Shown here piece after piece: positions 15,141 to 59,722 of a stretch of 59,958 nucleotides of DNA. Both the position numbers and the translations under genes were made by a program. The notes under the pieces were generated by a model. It was not told the DNA's origin, searched no databases, and saw only the letters and a program-made list of their open reading frames with translations. This DNA is from Bacteroidota bacterium (GTDB taxonomy: Bacteria > Bacteroidota > Bacteroidia > UKL13-3), in contig JAAFJM010000005.1 of NCBI GenBank assembly GCA_013298895.1, positions 170,229 through 230,186 of the forward strand, read 5' to 3'. Numbering within the stretch: position 1 is the first letter of the stretch; every line of letters starts with the position of its first letter.

Positions 15141-16127
15141 TTACTTAAGAATTAAATACTCAAACTTAGGAGTACCTTTTACACCATTATTATTGAAATC
15201 TAAGAAACGAAGTTTATAGGTTTCGTGTGAATGCCAATCTCTAATAATATAATTAACTTTGGTACGAGCTACATACTGTCCGGTTGTAAAATTATACACT
15301 TTCCAATCGTAACCCATTACATCACGTAAATTAGAGTAATGACAATTATTTTCAGCATATATTGGGGTAATAGCCTCAAAATTAATTGTACTATCTATAG
15401 CTACATCATTTTTAAATGTATTTATAAAAATCCCTCTTACCACATATTTTACAATAGGGTCATTTTCGTAAAACACATAACGGTATTTTAAGAAACAAAA
15501 ATCCCAGTCATCTTTTTTAGGTTCAAAGTTTATGTAAGTTGTAGGTGTAGTAAAACTAAAATATACATTTTGTTTCGATGGATCTTTATCTAAAATAATA
15601 CTTACTATAGCATTAGGATTATCAAGCGTAGCATATTCAAATTTATAACTGTTTTGGTTAACATCTATAAATCTAATTTGAAAATACCTATCTGTTTTAT
15701 AATAACCACCTCTGTCTAAAATATAAATTTTATCGCCATTTTCAAGCCAACGGTTAATGGCTAACGAGTCGTAACAACCACAAGGCGAATCCCATTTATA
15801 ATTAAAAGTATCTGGCTTGCTACTTCTAATAAATTTACGTGAATTAACCTTAGCAGCATACATATCCATTCCACCATTAATGGTTATATTATAACCAAAT
15901 TGTGAGGCATCAAAAGCTAAATCCCAACTATTGATATTAACAAGAGTTATCTGACTATCTTTTAAATTAAAAAAAGCTTGTTTCTCAAAATCTTTACCCA
16001 AACTATCAATTACAATAAACGAGGTATTGCCACGAGCAGGTAATTTTATAGTTGGTTCATCCTTTTCACATGCTGTAATCACAAATGTTATGACAAAAAG
16101 AAAATAAGCTAGTTTATTAATATTCAC
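15141..16127 (-). CDS. HmuY-like lipoprotein (putative heme-binding)
   Basis: The product has 328 residues from a GTG start at 16127. The N-terminus is a lipoprotein signal with Cys at residue 20 (FVITACEKD). The mature protein has HmuY-like segments: FFNLKDSQITLVNINSWDLAF near residues 57-77, and later YFSFTT... then DDWDFCFLKYRY and GYDWKVYN. HmuY proteins of Bacteroidota bind heme at the cell surface and hand it to a TonB receptor. It is the last gene of a three-gene operon, 16 bp behind the receptor gene. The gene at 18241 encodes a protein with the same two-part pattern. Ligand identity is inferred from family and context. Confidence 0.72.
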   Translation of the reverse strand: MNINKLAYFLFVITFVITACEKDEPTIKLPARGNTSFIVIDSLGKDFEKQAFFNLKDSQITLVNINSWDLAFDASQFGYNITINGGMDMYAAKVNSRKFIRSSKPDTFNYKWDSPCGCYDSLAINRWLENGDKIYILDRGGYYKTDRYFQIRFIDVNQNSYKFEYATLDNPNAIVSIILDKDPSKQNVYFSFTTPTTYINFEPKKDDWDFCFLKYRYVFYENDPIVKYVVRGIFINTFKNDVAIDSTINFEAITPIYAENNCHYSNLRDVMGYDWKVYNFTTGQYVARTKVNYIIRDWHSHETYKLRFLDFNNNGVKGTPKFEYLILK

Positions 16128-16143
16128 GTTTGTTTTTTATTAT

Positions 16144-18219
16144 TTAGTTAACTACTGAGTCCTGACCTTTATTTGAGGTAAGAAAATCTAAGCTTATTTT
16201 AAGCGATACAAAATAGGTTCTACCCATGGCGATTAAAGCACTATTACTATTTGATGCATGTGGACCACTAATTAAATTAGCATTCACATTTATCGTGTTT
16301 AGCAAATTTTTTGAACCTAACGTAACATTCAATTTTCGTTTTATAAAATATTTGTTTACTGTAATATCTAATAAATCAAATTGGTTCATACCACCTAATA
16401 CTATACTATTATCAGTTAAGTTGTATTGGTAATATTGCATGGCACCATTAAACTTGTAAAACAGGCTAATGGTGGCCTCACATTTTGTAAAAGTGTAGCT
16501 ACTATTTACTCTAAATTCGTTGGTGTAAAAATAAGTATTTGAATTTGATTGTGCCAAAATAGAATTTTGACGAGCACTAAATGCATAGCCTAACTGTAAA
16601 GTTACGGTATTACTAACAACACCTGTATTAAAGTTAAAGCCAATATTTTCAAAATTGGCAATATTATTATACTGTGCAGCAACTGTTATTGTATTTAACC
16701 TAACCAAATCAATCATGTTATTGATATTGTTGTAAAACAACATAGGCTCAATAGTTAAATTATAGTTTTTGTAAATTTTATTGGAGCGTGTAAAAGCCAA
16801 TTGGAAATTATGGCCTGTTTCTGCTTTCAAATTTTCATTTCCTAAAACATTGTGCTGTGGATCAACAAAAGCCAAATGCAATTCCTTTAATGAAGGAGCT
16901 CTGAAACCACGCGTGTAAGATGCTCTAGCAGACCAATTGGTATTAAAATCGTATTTGATATTTAACGAAGGAATAATTGGTGCTGTAAACTGAGTATTGT
17001 AAATAATACGTGCTGCTGGCCTAACCACCAATTGTTTATTTACTTTTATTTCGGCTCCAGCAAATAATCCATAATCACCAATTGATGCATAACCATTATT
17101 GATTTTAGAACCAGTTACCTCATCAATATTTATTTCGTAGCCAATTTGATAGCTCAATTTTTTATTTATTCCTCCGCGGTTCGTTAATATACCGCGACTC
17201 ATGTATAGGTTAAAATTATTGGTATCTTGCATTTCTGCATCCTCAACTAATTTTTCTATTCTATTAAAAAGGTCGTTTGTAATTGACCTTCTAATTCTTC
17301 TATAACTTTGATAAGTAGCTACTACATTCAAATTCCAGTTTTTACCGAATTTTTTATCGAAAAACAAACTACTTCCTAATCTTCTTGTATAATAATATTC
17401 ATCCAAAGCTGTGGCTTCAAACGAATTGATGTTTGGTTCTCCTTTATTAGATACTTTTTCATCGAAAAAACTATTGTTTAATCGTATAGTCCCATTTTTT
17501 ATAAAATAAGATAAATTTAAATCCGCCAAGTATTGGGTTCTTGGTTTCCAAGTTTTAAAACGTAATGAGTTATCATTATTAAAACCTTCAAAAAAGTTAC
17601 GTTGAAAATTGGTTTGGATTCCAAACTTTTTAAATCCTGTGGAAGCTTGAATATCGAAATTATACTGACCAATTGATTCAGCATAACTTCCTGCAGATAA
17701 ACGCGTATGGTTTTTTACAGCTTTTTTTGTGATGATATTAATAACTCCACCCATTGCATCTGAGCCATAATTAACTCCCATAGGCCCTTCCACCATTTCT
17801 ATTCGCTCTACACTCGATAAGTTAATTTGCGTCAAATCAATATTTCCTCCTTCACGACCAATTACAGGCACTCCATCTATCATTACTTTTATATTTTGGC
17901 CTGAAATGCCCTGTAAACTTATACTGTTACCCATCATAGGGTCATAATTAATTCTTACATTCAGTTCGTTTGCCAAAAGCGATGGTAAATTATAAGCACC
18001 CTGTAAATTTATACGCTTGATATCAATTACCTTTACCTTTAAAACAGAGTTTTTTTGAGTACACTCCCCTATTTGTCCTGTAATAATAATTTCACCTAAA
18101 CCTCTACTTTTAGTGGTATCTTGGTTTTGAGCAGTTAAATTAAAAACACCAACAACCATAAACATGGTAACCATTACCATGTTTATAGTTTTAAGAAATA
18201 TATTGGTGATGTTTTTCAA
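16144..18219 (-). CDS. TonB-dependent receptor, probable heme receptor
   Basis: The 691-residue outer-membrane protein has a signal peptide, a plug domain (IKVMIDGVP, VEGPMGVNYGSDAMGGVINI at about residues 110-165) and a 22-strand-type barrel to the end. A FRAP box (GFRAPSLKELHLAF, about residue 438) is followed by a HNVLGNENLKAE stretch in place of the NPDL box, with histidines between, as in HmuR-type heme receptors. The start shown is TTG 18219; ATG 18180 is an alternative with a shorter signal. It sits between two HmuY-like genes with gaps of 21 and 16 bp, so heme uptake driven by TonB is likely. Confidence 0.86.
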   Translation of the reverse strand: MKNITNIFLKTINMVMVTMFMVVGVFNLTAQNQDTTKSRGLGEIIITGQIGECTQKNSVLKVKVIDIKRINLQGAYNLPSLLANELNVRINYDPMMGNSISLQGISGQNIKVMIDGVPVIGREGGNIDLTQINLSSVERIEMVEGPMGVNYGSDAMGGVINIITKKAVKNHTRLSAGSYAESIGQYNFDIQASTGFKKFGIQTNFQRNFFEGFNNDNSLRFKTWKPRTQYLADLNLSYFIKNGTIRLNNSFFDEKVSNKGEPNINSFEATALDEYYYTRRLGSSLFFDKKFGKNWNLNVVATYQSYRRIRRSITNDLFNRIEKLVEDAEMQDTNNFNLYMSRGILTNRGGINKKLSYQIGYEINIDEVTGSKINNGYASIGDYGLFAGAEIKVNKQLVVRPAARIIYNTQFTAPIIPSLNIKYDFNTNWSARASYTRGFRAPSLKELHLAFVDPQHNVLGNENLKAETGHNFQLAFTRSNKIYKNYNLTIEPMLFYNNINNMIDLVRLNTITVAAQYNNIANFENIGFNFNTGVVSNTVTLQLGYAFSARQNSILAQSNSNTYFYTNEFRVNSSYTFTKCEATISLFYKFNGAMQYYQYNLTDNSIVLGGMNQFDLLDITVNKYFIKRKLNVTLGSKNLLNTINVNANLISGPHASNSNSALIAMGRTYFVSLKISLDFLTSNKGQDSVVN

Positions 18220-18240
18220 TATTTTAATTTTTATAAAAAA

Positions 18241-19536
18241 TTATTGTTTTATAAATTTAACTGTTTCGTTGCCGTTATTAGTAGAAATAGTTAATAAGTA
18301 CATACCCATTGGTAAGCCACTTATATCCAATTTATCATCAGCAGTAATTTCACTACTAATTAAAGCTTTTCCACTTAAATTGCTAATTGATACTTTCGCT
18401 TGTTTTACATTTGAGTTTAAAGATACAAAAATATTCTCGTTAGCAGGATTTGGATATAAACTCACTTCCAATTTATTTTTAATTGTTTCGTTTACGCTTA
18501 AACCAGCGTAATCAGTTTTATTAAACACAATGCTTTGTCTGTCTTGTCCAGCATAGTAGCTAGTAAATTTGATTTTATTGATTTTATTAGCAACACGAGT
18601 AAAATAAGCCATTGAATCTTTTATTGGCCAAGCACCTGGAGCGGTAGTAATTACCTTCCAATCCCAATCAATGGTTCTAATTTTAGACACAAATTGTAAC
18701 GTATCATAATTAAGACTATTAGCGTTTTCGCCTTGCACTTTGTATGCCATTGTATTATTATTTTGTAATACACCAGCTACTGGATACATAATAGTAGTAG
18801 GACCTAATGTCACTAATGCTTTGTAACGGGTAAATAATAAGTTCCAATCTTTTGCAACTACTGGCTCTCTGTCAATAACAGTATTGGTATTCATGTTATA
18901 ATAAGCAAATAATTTACCAGCAAAATCTTTTTTCTTGATAGTAACAGTGTTGCTATCAGTTCCGTCTAATTTACTAATAGTAAATACCCACATGGTGTCG
19001 TATGCAATTTTTTGGATAGAAACTTTTCTAAAGCTTGTTGGAGCTCCAAATGGATTTTGAGCATTATCAACAGCAATTAAAAACACTTTTGAACCAGTTA
19101 CATCGCGCGAGGTCATATCATAAGTACCCCAACCATAATCAAACGGATTTGAAAGGCTTCTGTTTTTGTTAAAAGCACCAATATCCCAAGTAGAATCACT
19201 GTTGAAAGAAGCTGGCCAAGTTTTCCAACCTGTAGTATCAAAAGTGCTCCAATTTGCAAATGATTGGTTCGATTCGTATATCGAAACTCCACGACCTTCA
19301 TTAATCAAAACGGAAGCAGCTTGCATAGTTTTTAAAGGTGGTTGAGCATTGCGTACTGCAAAAGCTAAATGCCAATTTCTGTTTGATACAGTATCCTTTT
19401 TACCTGTAGTTAAATTGTAAAAAACATCTACCGATGTTCCAACGGTCATACTAACTGAATCCACATTAGTTGTCTGCGAAAACACAGAGTTAGCAATAAA
19501 AGCTAAAAATAGAATTGTAAAGATTTTTTTATTCAT
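18241..19536 (-). CDS. T9SS-sorted HmuY-like secreted protein
   Basis: The product of 431 residues has a signal peptide (FIANSVFSQ) and two HmuY-like halves: DVFYNLTTGKK with NWHLAF (about residues 34-60), and KLFAYYNMNTN with DWNLLFTRYKAL and DWDWKVI (about 208-305). The last ~75 residues are a type A T9SS sorting domain: SLYPNPANENIFVSL, VSISNLSGKAL, LPMGMYLLTI and a KFIKQ end. It is therefore exported by T9SS, whereas its paralogue at 15141 is a lipoprotein. It is the first gene of the operon. A hemophore-like role is inference. Confidence 0.75.
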   Translation of the reverse strand: MNKKIFTILFLAFIANSVFSQTTNVDSVSMTVGTSVDVFYNLTTGKKDTVSNRNWHLAFAVRNAQPPLKTMQAASVLINEGRGVSIYESNQSFANWSTFDTTGWKTWPASFNSDSTWDIGAFNKNRSLSNPFDYGWGTYDMTSRDVTGSKVFLIAVDNAQNPFGAPTSFRKVSIQKIAYDTMWVFTISKLDGTDSNTVTIKKKDFAGKLFAYYNMNTNTVIDREPVVAKDWNLLFTRYKALVTLGPTTIMYPVAGVLQNNNTMAYKVQGENANSLNYDTLQFVSKIRTIDWDWKVITTAPGAWPIKDSMAYFTRVANKINKIKFTSYYAGQDRQSIVFNKTDYAGLSVNETIKNKLEVSLYPNPANENIFVSLNSNVKQAKVSISNLSGKALISSEITADDKLDISGLPMGMYLLTISTNNGNETVKFIKQ

Positions 19537-19579
19537 GATTTTTTTTCTTTCGAGTTTGCGAAAGTCGATACACTTACGG

Positions 19580-19619
19580 AATAAACCTTATGACGTATCT
19601 CAAAAATAACCCTTATGAC
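19580..19619. promoter_or_regulatory. direct repeat upstream of the HmuY/receptor operon
   Basis: AATAAACCTTATGAC (19580-19594) and AATAACCCTTATGAC (19605-19619) match at 14 of 15 positions, with starts 25 bp apart. They lie 44 bp upstream of the operon's first start codon, in the divergent gap to the methyltransferase at 19722. They could be an operator for an iron or heme regulator; no regulator gene is nearby. Confidence 0.4.
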
Positions 19620-19709
19620 TGTATTTTGACAATAAAAAAATAAATATTGCCATGCATCAAAATTGAAAGTGACTAATGTTAGTATTTTAGCCTATTTCAA
19701 GCAAAATAT

Positions 19710-19717
19710 TACTTTTG
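19710..19717 (+). promoter_or_regulatory. -7 promoter element (TACTTTTG)
   Basis: TACTTTTG fits TAnnTTTG and ends four bases before the ATG at 19722, so transcription would begin about at the start codon. Confidence 0.4.
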
Positions 19718-19721
19718 CTTT

Positions 19722-21738: not shown

Positions 21739-24525
21739 TTATTCCACTACTATTTTTCTAATAATTGATTTACCATCAATCATTGCTTTTAGTACAAAAA
21801 TTCCTTTAGAGGGAATTGCAATTGAATTGGTTTTATTCAATTCATCTTTGATAATTAATTTACCTGTAACATCCAATATTTCGAATGAAGCATGTTGTAA
21901 ATTCAAATCAGTGGTAAAGAAAATAGTTCCATTACTTGGATTAGGATAAATGTTAAAATTAGCGTTTGAAACTTCGTTTACACCAATTGAAGGCTGGATG
22001 GTAAAGGTAGCGCTGCTATCTTTTAAATTTCCGTCAATTTCATTAATAAATATTTTAGCATTTGCTGTATTTGCGAAAGGAACAGTTAAAGTATAACTTC
22101 CTTTACTTGCCAATTCCTTTTTCTTCCATAATTCAGTAACACCATTTATTACAAGTTTAACAGAAACAGAATCTACAAAAGTACTTTGCCAAGTAATTGT
22201 TTTAACTTCGGTTTCTTTCCAAATATCGTTTGCAACTGGAGTTAACAATTTTAAAGTAGGAATATTAATGGTAAAGTTAGCATTGCTTAAATCAGAGTTA
22301 GCATTATCTAAAGTTGTAATTTTAATTTTTGCAGTAGTTGTAGCAATAGCAGGAACAGTCCATGCATAAGTTGCAGTACTTGCATTAACAGAATCAATAA
22401 AAATAAAGTCAGTTCCATTGGTGGTGTATTCTAATTTTACCTTACCGCTAATATTTGCAGCTAACCATGTAATATTGGTAGATTTTCCTGCTACTAAATT
22501 TTCGCCTCCATTAGGTGTATTAACTGCTAAAACTCGGGTTTGAATTAAAGTCATTGATTTAAAATCAATCAAGTTAGCCCAACTAGGATTATCAATAAAT
22601 GGATTACGGTTTTTTTGAACTGAAGCTATGTATTCGTGGCGAGCAATTTCTTCTTCACTTGGTGGATCTTGTTGATGCCATTTCATTAAAACTGCTAAAC
22701 CTTGATCAGCAGGTAAAGTCCAAACATTTCCGTTTATGCCATTATAACTAACCGACATATAAAACAATGCCCTGGCTAAATCACCTTTTTGCGTATCTTT
22801 TGGTTCATAAACAGTGTTGCCATTTGCATCTTTTCCTAATTTACCAAAACCCGAAGGCGAAGTAGACGTAACAGTTACACACTCGCCAAAAGGATTATTG
22901 GAACGAGGTGCATTGGCCAATGTTTGATGAGCTGGGAATAAATTATGCAAATCATTGTATTCAGGTAATTCAAAGTTTGATGGACTACGAGGCCAATTAG
23001 GGTTTTGCGTTGCATTGTTACTTGGCATAGTACTTTGGGCACGAGTATGTTCTCTTGTTAATATTCCTGTATTACCACTTGCATTCCAAACAAAAGGTTC
23101 GGCATAAATATAAGGTAGTCCGGTATAAACACAATTTACTACTTTTTTGCCTAAAGTTGTATCTCTTGTTAAAAAATTATTGATTACAGTTGTTATATAA
23201 TTACTGTAAAAAACAGTATCATGAACATTTACCTTGGCACTTAAATTAGTTATAAAGGTGCTAGAAGCAGGATCAATATTGTTATAATAATTTCCTGGAT
23301 TTCCGCTTAATGATTGCGTAGAGCCTGAATTAACATTACTTGTTAAATAATTTTCGAAGGTAGCTGGTCCGTTAAATGAAAAAACCGAATAACTGTAATT
23401 GTTATTTGCCAAAATATATGTTGGTTTAAATGTTCCGATTTTTCCAACATAAGCTACTTGCGCATCACCTATATAATCTCCCCTTTGATAGGTAACTCCA
23501 TCTACTGGAACTTCAGAAATTGTTCCATTTCTTTTACGTAAAACTAAATAATTTTCAGTAGTTGAATTGGTATCCTCTATCGTTACATTCATTCCATAAG
23601 CTGTAACGTTTGTAAAGCTTATATTGGTTGATTTGAAACTAGGTTCGGTAGCTAAATTTCCCCCAATACCATATAAATTTATAATGAATTTTGATTTATC
23701 AAGATCATTGTTAAAGATATTAATAGCTGCTATTTTACTTCCTTTTCCAATTGTGTCTAGAACACAATTTAAAAAAAATGAATCTTTAGCTGCAATCTTG
23801 ATAGGCAATGGATTAGAGAAAGAGTATTCCGTTGCATTAATTCCTGTAAAACTTACACTATCAATTGTTAAAGTATCAGCCAAACCCAAATTTTTAATTT
23901 TAAACGAAAAATTAGCATTATTTCCAACCACATTTTGCGAATTGTTCGCAATAATTGTGTTATTTCTACTTATTTGAATAGTTGGGGTAGTTGCTGCAGA
24001 TGCTGGTAAAATCAAAACACTATCCAAAGCAATATTTCCACCAGGAACACTGGCACTACCTCCTGCTATTTTAGTAGTAAAGAAAAACCTAACAAATCTT
24101 GTGGTTTGCTTTAAATTAGAATCGGAGTACTTACCTCCTGTAAAGTTTGTGGTTGTAGTGGCTTTTGAGGTAATAGAACGAACATTACTCCATGTTGTTC
24201 CATTATCACTTTCTTGAATATCAAATTGACCTGCCCATGGATTACCTGCATTTTGAGGACTTAAATAATAACTTAAAACACCTGGTTTATCTGCTATATT
24301 GATTAATACATATTCACCGGCAGCATCCAATCTACAAGAAATAGCATCTCCAACACCAAAACCATATGTTAAATTACCATTTGTTCCTAAGCCTAATGTC
24401 CAACCAACTGGAACAGCAGAACTAGATGGGGTTGAAAAATTCCATGATGTAGGAAGCAATGCTTGTGCTTGTGATGCAATAGCAACTGCACAAAAACCTA
24501 AGTTGAGTAAAATTTTTTTAAACAT
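21739..24525 (-). CDS. secreted endonuclease I family protein with T9SS sorting domain
   Basis: From ATG 24525 the product has 928 residues; the frame extends nine codons further, but MFKKILLNLG begins the signal peptide. After an N-terminal beta domain (about 25-165) and an ASH/DUF1573-like domain (about 175-285) comes an endonuclease I module at about 430-660. It shows LTREHTRAQS (the REH catalytic segment), DLHNLFP, and KGDLARALFYMS. Two Ig-like PNGGE...W domains follow, then a type A T9SS domain (NIYPNPSNGTIFF ... KIVVE). It is probably an extracellular nuclease for DNA scavenging or matrix turnover. Confidence 0.87.
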   Translation of the reverse strand: MFKKILLNLGFCAVAIASQAQALLPTSWNFSTPSSSAVPVGWTLGLGTNGNLTYGFGVGDAISCRLDAAGEYVLINIADKPGVLSYYLSPQNAGNPWAGQFDIQESDNGTTWSNVRSITSKATTTTNFTGGKYSDSNLKQTTRFVRFFFTTKIAGGSASVPGGNIALDSVLILPASAATTPTIQISRNNTIIANNSQNVVGNNANFSFKIKNLGLADTLTIDSVSFTGINATEYSFSNPLPIKIAAKDSFFLNCVLDTIGKGSKIAAINIFNNDLDKSKFIINLYGIGGNLATEPSFKSTNISFTNVTAYGMNVTIEDTNSTTENYLVLRKRNGTISEVPVDGVTYQRGDYIGDAQVAYVGKIGTFKPTYILANNNYSYSVFSFNGPATFENYLTSNVNSGSTQSLSGNPGNYYNNIDPASSTFITNLSAKVNVHDTVFYSNYITTVINNFLTRDTTLGKKVVNCVYTGLPYIYAEPFVWNASGNTGILTREHTRAQSTMPSNNATQNPNWPRSPSNFELPEYNDLHNLFPAHQTLANAPRSNNPFGECVTVTSTSPSGFGKLGKDANGNTVYEPKDTQKGDLARALFYMSVSYNGINGNVWTLPADQGLAVLMKWHQQDPPSEEEIARHEYIASVQKNRNPFIDNPSWANLIDFKSMTLIQTRVLAVNTPNGGENLVAGKSTNITWLAANISGKVKLEYTTNGTDFIFIDSVNASTATYAWTVPAIATTTAKIKITTLDNANSDLSNANFTINIPTLKLLTPVANDIWKETEVKTITWQSTFVDSVSVKLVINGVTELWKKKELASKGSYTLTVPFANTANAKIFINEIDGNLKDSSATFTIQPSIGVNEVSNANFNIYPNPSNGTIFFTTDLNLQHASFEILDVTGKLIIKDELNKTNSIAIPSKGIFVLKAMIDGKSIIRKIVVE

Positions 24526-24660
24526 AATTTTGCCATTTAAAAAGCTTGGCAATGTAAAACTTTTAATACTATAAAAATAATATGGTATTGTAAATTAATC
24601 GTTAGCATTTTTTAACTTAAATAAAATACAATATTTATATCTTGCCATATCGAAATTTAT

Positions 24661-59650: not shown

Positions 59651-59722
<72 letters not shown>

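What the first reader, a model, noticed from the sequence alone, without database searches (positions are those of the whole stretch)
15141..19536. Operon with two HmuY-like proteins of different anchoring around a heme-type TonB receptor
Seen: both soluble genes encode proteins with the same two-part pattern (a Y/F-x-N...W-x-LAF segment, then a W-x-x-x-F-x-x-Y and WKV segment). One has a lipobox; the other has a T9SS type A sorting domain. The receptor between them carries a FRAP box and nearby histidines. Known: HmuY proteins of Bacteroidota bind heme and work with HmuR. Inference: a two-stage relay, with a T9SS-exported hemophore feeding a lipoprotein and then the receptor. I know of no described case where the T9SS form and the lipoprotein form are paired like this.
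Basis: partly seen in the sequence, partly recalled or inferred. Interest (0 to 1): 0.68.

Follow-up and report, generated by a model that had tools for sequence, protein, structure and literature searches.

The report
Paired surface heme-capture gene cassette
Three neighbouring genes encode two related, probably heme-catching proteins, one exported to the outside and one lipid-anchored, together with an outer-membrane gate; the same trio recurs in many Bacteroidota and is kept in a lineage that seems to have lost the ability to make heme, so it probably supplies that essential cofactor.

Summary
Window 15141-19536 (minus strand) is a tight unit: T9SS-tailed protein, TonB receptor, lipoprotein. 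The two soluble proteins are homologous (profile-profile E 1.5e-45) and both models match HmuY-type structures (Z 12.2-15.1 and 10.2-13.1), although the window's own sequences miss PF14064. The order T9SS form, receptor, lipoprotein is kept in 82 of 83 distinct complete cassettes, and one 100/100 branch separates the two forms, so the pairing is old. Heme is supported independently: hmuTUV-hmuS and chaN in the Acidiluteibacter operon; HemB and ferrochelatase missing in 57 of 58 genomes of the window's family, while the window's genome keeps two heme-copper oxidases. FecCD permease is missing in 58 of 58, so the inner-membrane step is unknown. Relay direction and heme binding are inferred; no heme ligand pair is conserved. 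Near-precedents (F. columnare, P. endodontalis, P. intermedia) weaken the 'never described' claim. Verdict: new variant of the Hmu system; reading partly supported.

The parts
18241..19536 (-). T9SS-exported HmuY-type protein (431 aa): signal peptide ~1-20, HmuY-fold body ~20-345, T9SS type A sorting domain 357-431
18241..18468 (-). region encoding the T9SS type A sorting domain (residues 357-431) plus stop
   Evidence: TIGR04183 62 bits, PF18962 54.6 bits; fold Z 12.5 to T9SS C-terminal domains 8glk (75 aligned, 1.8 A) and 8qb1 (75 aligned, 1.5 A)
16144..18219 (-). TonB-dependent receptor (691 aa), HmuR-like by context; FRAP 439-442, His448, His456, GNENL 460-464; mechanical start TTG
15141..16127 (-). 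HmuY-type lipoprotein (328 aa); lipobox Cys20 followed by E-K-D-E, fitting the C-X-K-(D/E)2-X surface-export signal; mechanical start GTG
19537..19721 (-). 185-bp region shared with a divergent gene; probable promoter region; block TGTAwCGACTTTCGCA near the start codon kept in the window and five related loci
   Evidence: 6 of 6 aligned sequences; function not tested

Best explanation
This is a heme-acquisition cassette of the Hmu (HmuY/HmuR) kind with two HmuY-type proteins facing outward. The first carries a T9SS type A signal: it crosses the outer membrane, is attached to the surface or released, and catches heme outside (export signal shown by sequence; attachment and binding inferred). 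The second is a lipoprotein with a surface-export signature (shown by sequence), probably sitting over the receptor as a lid or docking partner (inferred). Heme moves from the exported form to the lipoprotein and through the TonB receptor into the periplasm (direction inferred; I give this relay step alone about 0.45). In the window's family the cassette probably makes up for lost heme synthesis (gene losses shown; dependence inferred). How heme passes the inner membrane there is unknown. The confidence below is for the heme-acquisition cassette with two outward HmuY-type proteins.
For: Homology: T9SS-form vs lipoprotein profiles E 1.5e-45; PF14064 matched at E<=0.1 by 24 of 29 lipoprotein and 9 of 28 T9SS-form homologues; the lipoprotein profile finds PDB chains 8b6a (8.9e-9) and 3h8t HmuY (1.7e-6), the T9SS-form profile the same two at 0.003 and 0.0056. 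Fold: lipoprotein model pLDDT 91.9 matches eight HmuY-type entries at Z 12.2-15.1 (for example 3h8t Z 13.2, 134 aligned, 3.0 A), next row Z 8.8, then 4.5; T9SS-form model pLDDT 86.3 matches PinO Z 13.1 (128 aligned, 3.1 A), Tfo 11.8 (161, 4.1 A), BF2707 11.7 (131, 3.8 A), BfrC 10.2 (130, 4.0 A). Context: in L138 HmuT, HmuU, HmuV and HmuS genes lie between T9SS form and receptor, and ChaN follows the lipoprotein; similar genes in L131 and L067 and in regions L163 (other strand), L177 and L179. Need: HemB and ferrochelatase each absent in 57 of 58 family genomes; in the other 39 genomes (one per family) ferrochelatase absent in 6 of 9 with a strong T9SS-form match vs 5 of 30 without, Fisher p 0.008; HemB 6 of 9 vs 6 of 30, p 0.014. 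Two heme-copper oxidases in the own genome.
Against: No His, Met or Cys apart from the lipid Cys and the start Met is kept in 70% or more of either family; the best, a His in 31 of 49 T9SS forms, is Arg144 in the window. The window proteins miss PF14064, and so does the T9SS form of L138 at E<=0.001. The receptor scores best against the B12 model and passes no heme model's cut-off. FecCD is absent in 58 of 58 family genomes, HemS and ChaN in the own genome, so the usual downstream heme steps are missing. A clade of 18 lipoprotein-type genes lies apart from any receptor I recognised. Three of the nine T9SS-form genomes outside the family keep HemB and ferrochelatase. The nine were set by my own limit (E under 1e-20); G070, counted as 'without', has a receptor and an HmuY-like gene. 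No binding, expression or localisation data.
Confidence: 0.68

Rival explanations
1. Same cassette, but no relay (a rival to the relay step, so it overlaps with the best explanation). Each HmuY-type protein delivers heme to the receptor on its own, or the T9SS form only stores or scavenges heme, and the lipoprotein is a permanent receptor subunit like BtuG on BtuB.
For: In G033 and G044 the T9SS form (doubled) is on another contig than receptor and lipoprotein (L061/L062, L063/L064). 15 of 118 distinct lipoproteins have a receptor but no same-strand T9SS form within 9 kb, some on truncated contigs.
Against: 82 of 83 complete cassettes keep the order T9SS form, receptor, lipoprotein, and the two forms have stayed distinct since one split; neither shows which way heme moves.
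Confidence: 0.35
2. The ligand is not heme but another TonB substrate, such as a corrinoid or a ferric chelate, bound by a repurposed HmuY fold.
For: The receptor's best NCBIfam model is TonB-B12 (E 1.5e-38, below cut-off); no conserved heme ligands; no FecCD, HemS or ChaN in the own genome.
Against: HmuTUV/HmuS and ChaN genes in related operons; loss of heme synthesis goes with the T9SS form; the missing FecCD would be needed for a BtuC-type B12 importer as well (BtuC models match this family); no cobalamin riboswitch at Rfam's gathering score in the window.
Confidence: 0.12
3. The system takes heme only as an iron source: iron is removed at the envelope and the porphyrin is not used.
For: In L066, L071 and L073 a CbiX-type protein with a lipoprotein-like start and a PepSY-type protein (PepSY checked by Pfam in L066 only) lie between T9SS form and receptor; CbiX-type genes also in regions L165, L171, L175, L178.
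Against: Those genes are not in the window cassette, and the window's family lacks HemB and ferrochelatase while its own genome keeps two heme-copper oxidases.
Confidence: 0.12

Closest known systems
Porphyromonas gingivalis HmuY/HmuR (Hmu system)
   Same: HmuY-type fold and receptor in one operon, heme auxotrophy (PMC12106395, abstract and passages); HmuY 3h8t matches the lipoprotein model at Z 13.2, 134 aligned, 3.0 A
   Different: There one HmuY beside HmuR and His-His heme coordination; here two enlarged forms (about 310-330 residues against about 175-200 in the solved chains), one with a T9SS domain, and no conserved ligand pair
Flavobacterium psychrophilum HfpR/HfpY
   Same: Receptor plus a divergent HmuY-like protein that binds heme 1:1 (PMC9331221, passages)
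   Different: One HmuY-type protein in the operon described, with a DoxX-family gene between; no T9SS form in the passages seen
Flavobacterium columnare HmuY (C6N29_01035)
   Same: PF14064 plus T9SS sorting domain, described as T9SS-secreted (PMC9618737, passages with table row)
   Different: No lipoprotein partner in the passages seen; its deletion gave no growth defect in the two media tested
Porphyromonas endodontalis hmu operon with POREN0001_0445
   Same: A T9SS type A protein gene upstream of hmuY, shown to be part of the hmu operon (PMC11208336, one passage)
   Different: That protein is not said to be HmuY-type in the passage; I could not test it
Prevotella intermedia hmuY locus PIOMA14_I_1196-98
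   Same: hmuY followed by a T9SS type A gene, both strongly induced by iron depletion (PMC10434189, passages)
   Different: No receptor in that small locus as described; the T9SS protein is not said to be HmuY-type
BtuB/BtuG vitamin B12 uptake of Bacteroides
   Same: TonB receptor with a surface lipoprotein (PMC10404256, search listing with start of abstract)
   Different: Other ligand; BtuG fold differs and no T9SS partner is known to me (recalled)

Membership tests
HmuY family (PF14064) | HmuY-type fold | tested here: met
   Lipoprotein model Z 12.2-15.1 to eight entries, 133-161 aligned, rmsd 2.9-3.4 A for six and 5.8-6.9 A for two; T9SS-form model Z 10.2-13.1 to four entries. PinO, Tfo, HmuY and BVU_2192 are named HmuY-type; BfrB, BfrC and BF2707 I recall as such
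HmuY family (PF14064) | The window's own sequences pass the PF14064 score | tested here: not met
   No hit at E<=1 for either protein, none in the own genome
HmuY family (PF14064) | Homologues in the same cassette position pass the PF14064 score | tested here: met
   Lipoproteins L138 66.7 and L133 53 bits, cut-off 27; 24 of 29 and 9 of 28 homologues at E<=0.1. The T9SS form of L138 does not
HmuY family (PF14064) | Axial heme ligand pair (His-His, His-Met or Met-Met) | tested here: inconclusive
   No pair kept in 70% or more; the family itself varies and some members bind heme without iron coordination (PMC12106395, abstract)
HmuY family (PF14064) | Binds heme | not testable with these tools
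   Needs protein
Hmu heme uptake system (HmuYR) | HmuY gene beside a TonB-dependent receptor gene | tested here: met
   Window; 98 of 118 distinct lipoproteins have the receptor on the same strand within 9 kb
Hmu heme uptake system (HmuYR) | Accompanying inner-membrane or heme-processing genes | tested here: not met
   None recognised in the window cassette; FecCD, HemS and ChaN absent from the own genome; present in some relatives
Heme-type TonB receptor | NCBIfam TonB-hemin or TonB-hemlactrns cut-off | tested here: not met
   80.1 of 316.85 and 89 of 323.75 bits
Heme-type TonB receptor | His between the FRAP and NPxL-like boxes | tested here: met
   H456 kept in 37 of 38; of 97 cassette receptors my motif was found in 81, with a His in 76 of those. 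No unrelated receptors were available as control, so its specificity is untested
TonB-B12 receptor (BtuB) | NCBIfam TIGR01779 cut-off | tested here: not met
   132.8 of 599.7 bits
T9SS type A substrate | C-terminal sorting domain and signal peptide | tested here: met
   62 bits over cut-off 23; fold Z 12.5; N-terminal hydrophobic stretch, read by eye and helical in the model; no signal-peptide program was run
Surface lipoprotein (LES) | Cys followed by X-K-(D/E)2 | tested here: met
   Window C-E-K-D-E. Among 78 rows: strict match 20, K at +3 69, D/E at +5 77. Signal as in PMC5080379 (passages), defined in another genus; other genera there have other signals

The most novel reading that the evidence does not exclude
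An ancient two-HmuY surface relay, split once into a T9SS-borne catcher and a lipid-anchored receiver, is the sole heme entry of a whole, probably freshwater, family of Bacteroidota that lost heme synthesis; it feeds heme into the envelope without any FecCD-type importer, so that heme reaches membrane and periplasmic cytochromes from outside by an unknown step.
Probability: 0.3. Interest if true: 0.78.

Novelty: new variant of a known kind. Interest (0 to 1): 0.6.

Why it matters
It gives the HmuY family a second, T9SS-exported branch with a kept genetic partner, and ties both to predicted heme auxotrophy in a lineage known mostly from metagenomes. Two open points become testable: how T9SS-exported and lipid-anchored hemophore-like proteins share work, and how heme crosses the inner membrane when no FecCD importer is encoded. 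It also suggests heme as a supplement for culturing these bacteria.

Tried and rejected
B12 system: best NCBIfam match of the receptor, but no cobalamin riboswitch in the window at gathering score and heme genes in relatives' operons; kept only as a rival. The direct Pfam test of the window proteins failed; homologue profiles and folds were used instead. Pfam also misses family genomes that have the cassette (G003, G010, G017, G019 without match), so 107 of 295 there is a lower bound for HmuY-type proteins. Foldseek alone gave low TM-scores (0.16-0.25 by query length) and rmsd 16.8-20.1 A for the HmuY-type rows of the lipoprotein, although they were its top ten rows, and for the T9SS form mostly tail or unrelated rows; the clear matches come from VIA-align. 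HmuY 3h8t is not among the T9SS form's 50 rows; this excludes nothing. Control receptors for the FRAP-His motif: none in the set. Papers: the pairing was sought (open-licence papers only); none of the passages I read describes an HmuY-type T9SS form paired with an HmuY lipoprotein, but most listed papers were not opened. T. maritimum papers mention only HmuYR (passages). Searches (heme auxotrophy, ferrochelatase, Bacteroidota; UKL13-3, heme) returned no papers; a freshwater culture paper names four heme-auxotrophic genera (passages of PMC12381374), and the paper it cites on aquatic heme auxotrophy is not held.

Count caveats. Loci L041-L080 were chosen by me from hits, L081-L160 by similarity to the lipoprotein, L163-L182 because one search listed long or paired PF14064 hits. 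So 82 of 83 is about order, not prevalence. In the lipoprotein-selected set 52 of 80 had T9SS form and receptor (in L126 the T9SS hit is a fragment downstream), 9 a receptor only (4 of these on contigs cut just upstream), 19 neither (a few near a contig end). The T9SS label rests on a profile of my own. The tree used 45 of 78 T9SS forms, 45 of 94 cassette lipoproteins and 20 of 20 lone ones; two of the lone ones, L075 and L088, sit at contig ends. One search used residues 70-431 of the T9SS form, so most of its weak hits are other T9SS tails. G063's ferrochelatase match has a stop inside and G092's is partial; both were counted as present.

Full report
What is there. The three ORFs lie on the minus strand in the order T9SS-tailed protein (18241-19536), TonB receptor (16144-18219), lipoprotein (15141-16127), with gaps of 21 and 16 bp, 185 bp to the divergent gene upstream and 7 bp to the convergent gene downstream. 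Receptor and lipoprotein begin with TTG and GTG in the mechanical list, so their exact starts are uncertain. The sorting domain passes two curated cut-offs.

Are the two proteins related, and are they HmuY-type? Directly they align weakly (E 1e-4), and neither matches PF14064. With homologues the picture is clear. The two profiles align over 284 columns at E 1.5e-45. PF14064 is matched at E<=0.1 by 24 of 29 lipoprotein homologues (best 5.7e-21) and 9 of 28 T9SS-form homologues (best 3e-11). Against PDB sequences the lipoprotein profile finds five chains: 8b6a (8.9e-9), 3h8t HmuY (1.7e-6), 6eu8 (0.0016), 3u22 (0.021), 4gbs (0.1); three are named HmuY or heme-binding, 8b6a and 4gbs only 'lipoprotein'. 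The T9SS-form profile finds 8b6a (0.003), 3h8t (0.0056) and an unrelated isomerase (0.21). AlphaFold models (pLDDT 91.9 for the lipoprotein, 86.3 for the T9SS form) match HmuY-type structures. Lipoprotein: eight entries at Z 12.2-15.1 (6r2h 15.1 with 161 aligned at 6.9 A; 3u22 14.0, 139 at 2.9 A; 3h8t 13.2, 134 at 3.0 A), then Z 8.8 (4ei0, DUF4466) and 4.5. T9SS form: PinO Z 13.1 (128 aligned, 3.1 A), Tfo 11.8 (161, 4.1 A), BF2707 11.7 (131, 3.8 A), BfrC 10.2 (130, 4.0 A) on residues about 16-345, and T9SS C-terminal domains at Z 12.5 on about 356-431. Both proteins are larger than the solved chains, about 310-330 residues of body against 175-200.

How old and how wide is the pairing? In the window's family (f1, 58 genomes with its own) a body match to the T9SS form is found in 57 of 58 (in G036, 70% complete, only a match of tail strength) and the lipoprotein in 56 of 58. 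A scan of one-per-species genomes with the lipoprotein found 222 relatives, of which the best 80 were kept; 52 of 80 have T9SS form and receptor nearby, 9 a receptor only, 19 neither. After removing duplicates over the fetched loci there were 118 distinct lipoproteins: 83 with receptor and T9SS form on the same strand within 9 kb, 15 with receptor only, 20 alone. The order T9SS form, receptor, lipoprotein holds in 82 of the 83; L070 is the exception. In a class-wide search PF14064 matched 107 of 295 genomes, 104 over cut-off. I fetched 20 regions picked for long or paired hits, and 18 of 20 show T9SS form, receptor and lipoprotein-type protein together; in 3 of the 18 my lipobox pattern was not found, and L179 and L180 differ. 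A maximum-likelihood tree of 110 rows separates all 45 T9SS forms from all 65 lipoproteins by one branch with 100/100 support. So the two forms split once and have mostly stayed together; they are not local duplicates.

What ligand? Three lines point to heme. First, neighbours: in Acidiluteibacter ferrifornacis S-15 (Cryomorphaceae) the order is T9SS form, periplasmic binding protein (PF01497), FecCD permease, heme-type ATPase (285 bits, over its cut-off of 261), HemS/ChuX protein (PF05171 5.1e-78), receptor, lipoprotein (PF14064 3.4e-18), ChaN (PF04187 7.6e-55). HmuS-type genes with companions also occur in L131 and L067 and in regions L163 (opposite strand), L177 and L179. Other cassettes hold a CbiX-type protein, often with PepSY, or DUF6607; 64 of the 83 complete cassettes show none of the accessory genes I had profiles for, and the window is one of these. 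Second, loss of heme synthesis: ferrochelatase and HemB are each absent in 57 of 58 family genomes; G040 alone has both. Among the other 39 genomes, each of a different family, ferrochelatase is absent in 6 of 9 with a strong T9SS-form match and 5 of 30 without (Fisher p 0.008), HemB in 6 of 9 and 6 of 30 (p 0.014); the test ignores deeper kinship, and three of the nine keep both enzymes. Third, the own genome carries two heme-copper oxidases, so heme is still needed.

What speaks against, or is missing? Apart from the lipid Cys and start Met, no His, Met or Cys is kept in 70% or more of either family, so heme binding, if present, differs from P. gingivalis HmuY; other members differ too (PMC12106395, abstract and passages). 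The receptor passes no heme cut-off and scores best against the B12 model. FecCD is absent in 58 of 58 family genomes although the same search rings in 13 of 14 control genomes; HemS and ChaN are absent from the own genome. So the inner-membrane step is open: another transporter, or use of heme at the periplasmic face, where cytochrome c is matured (recalled). The genomes are largely drafts, and those of the genome search are unnamed.

How it most likely works. The T9SS form is exported and anchored or released at the surface (signal shown; type A substrates are often attached to surface polysaccharide, recalled). The lipoprotein has C-E-K-D-E at the lipid site, fitting the C-X-K-(D/E)2-X export signal described in Capnocytophaga (PMC5080379, passages); among 78 rows K at +3 in 69, D/E at +5 in 77, strict match in 20. 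So both probably face outward, one loosely placed, one beside the receptor. A relay from outside to inside is the simplest use of such a pair, but no result here shows the direction.

Against what is known. HmuY/HmuR is known, and HfpY/HfpR in F. psychrophilum (PMC9331221, passages). A T9SS-secreted HmuY is known in F. columnare (PMC9618737, passages). T9SS type A genes beside hmuY are reported in P. endodontalis (PMC11208336, passage; also a figure legend of PMC12106395) and P. intermedia (PMC10434189, passages). What I did not find through searches is that the T9SS partner is itself HmuY-type, that the pair is an old kept cassette, or that it goes with predicted heme auxotrophy. I therefore call it a new variant of a known kind.

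Noticed in passing
L098 3668-5938 (Bacteroidetes bacterium UKL13-3); L061 5966-8278; L063 6414-8714: T9SS form with two tandem HmuY-type modules in one protein (756-770 aa); in G033 and G044 (L061, L063) it lies on another contig than receptor and lipoprotein.
   Followed up: partly
L133 7917-8978, L137 7959-8972, L116 7983-8969, L129 7986-8993 and others: A clade of lone lipoprotein-type HmuY genes (18 rows) without recognised receptor or T9SS form; in these four next to a redoxin-like gene, in three of them also near a Lon-like protease gene (both names from reading the sequence).
   Followed up: partly
G040 contig C15, 84617-85567 and 88285-89280: The only one of 58 family genomes with HemB and ferrochelatase; the two matches lie within 5 kb of each other, so the pathway may have been regained or kept there.
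   Followed up: no
L066 2702-4230, L071 9988-11522, L073 7538-9063: Within the cassette, a CbiX-type protein with a lipoprotein-like start and a small membrane protein (PepSY-type by Pfam in L066), possibly an envelope heme chelatase or dechelatase.
   Followed up: partly
L090, L094, L103, L104, L106, L107, L109, L111, L119, L120, L142, just downstream of the lipoprotein: A recurrent gene of 347-355 aa whose product starts alike (..HLKNLRQ.. or close); TolB/beta-propeller-like as I recall, not tested.
   Followed up: no
window 19537-19721: Upstream region with two GTCATAAGG copies in the window and a block TGTAwCGACTTTCGCA kept in the window and five related loci; may be a regulator site.
   Followed up: no
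window 21739-24552: Another large protein (937 aa) that by eye ends in a T9SS-like tail and looks endonuclease-I-like.
   Followed up: no
window 59651-59722: tRNA gene, the only Rfam match at gathering score in the window.
   Followed up: no
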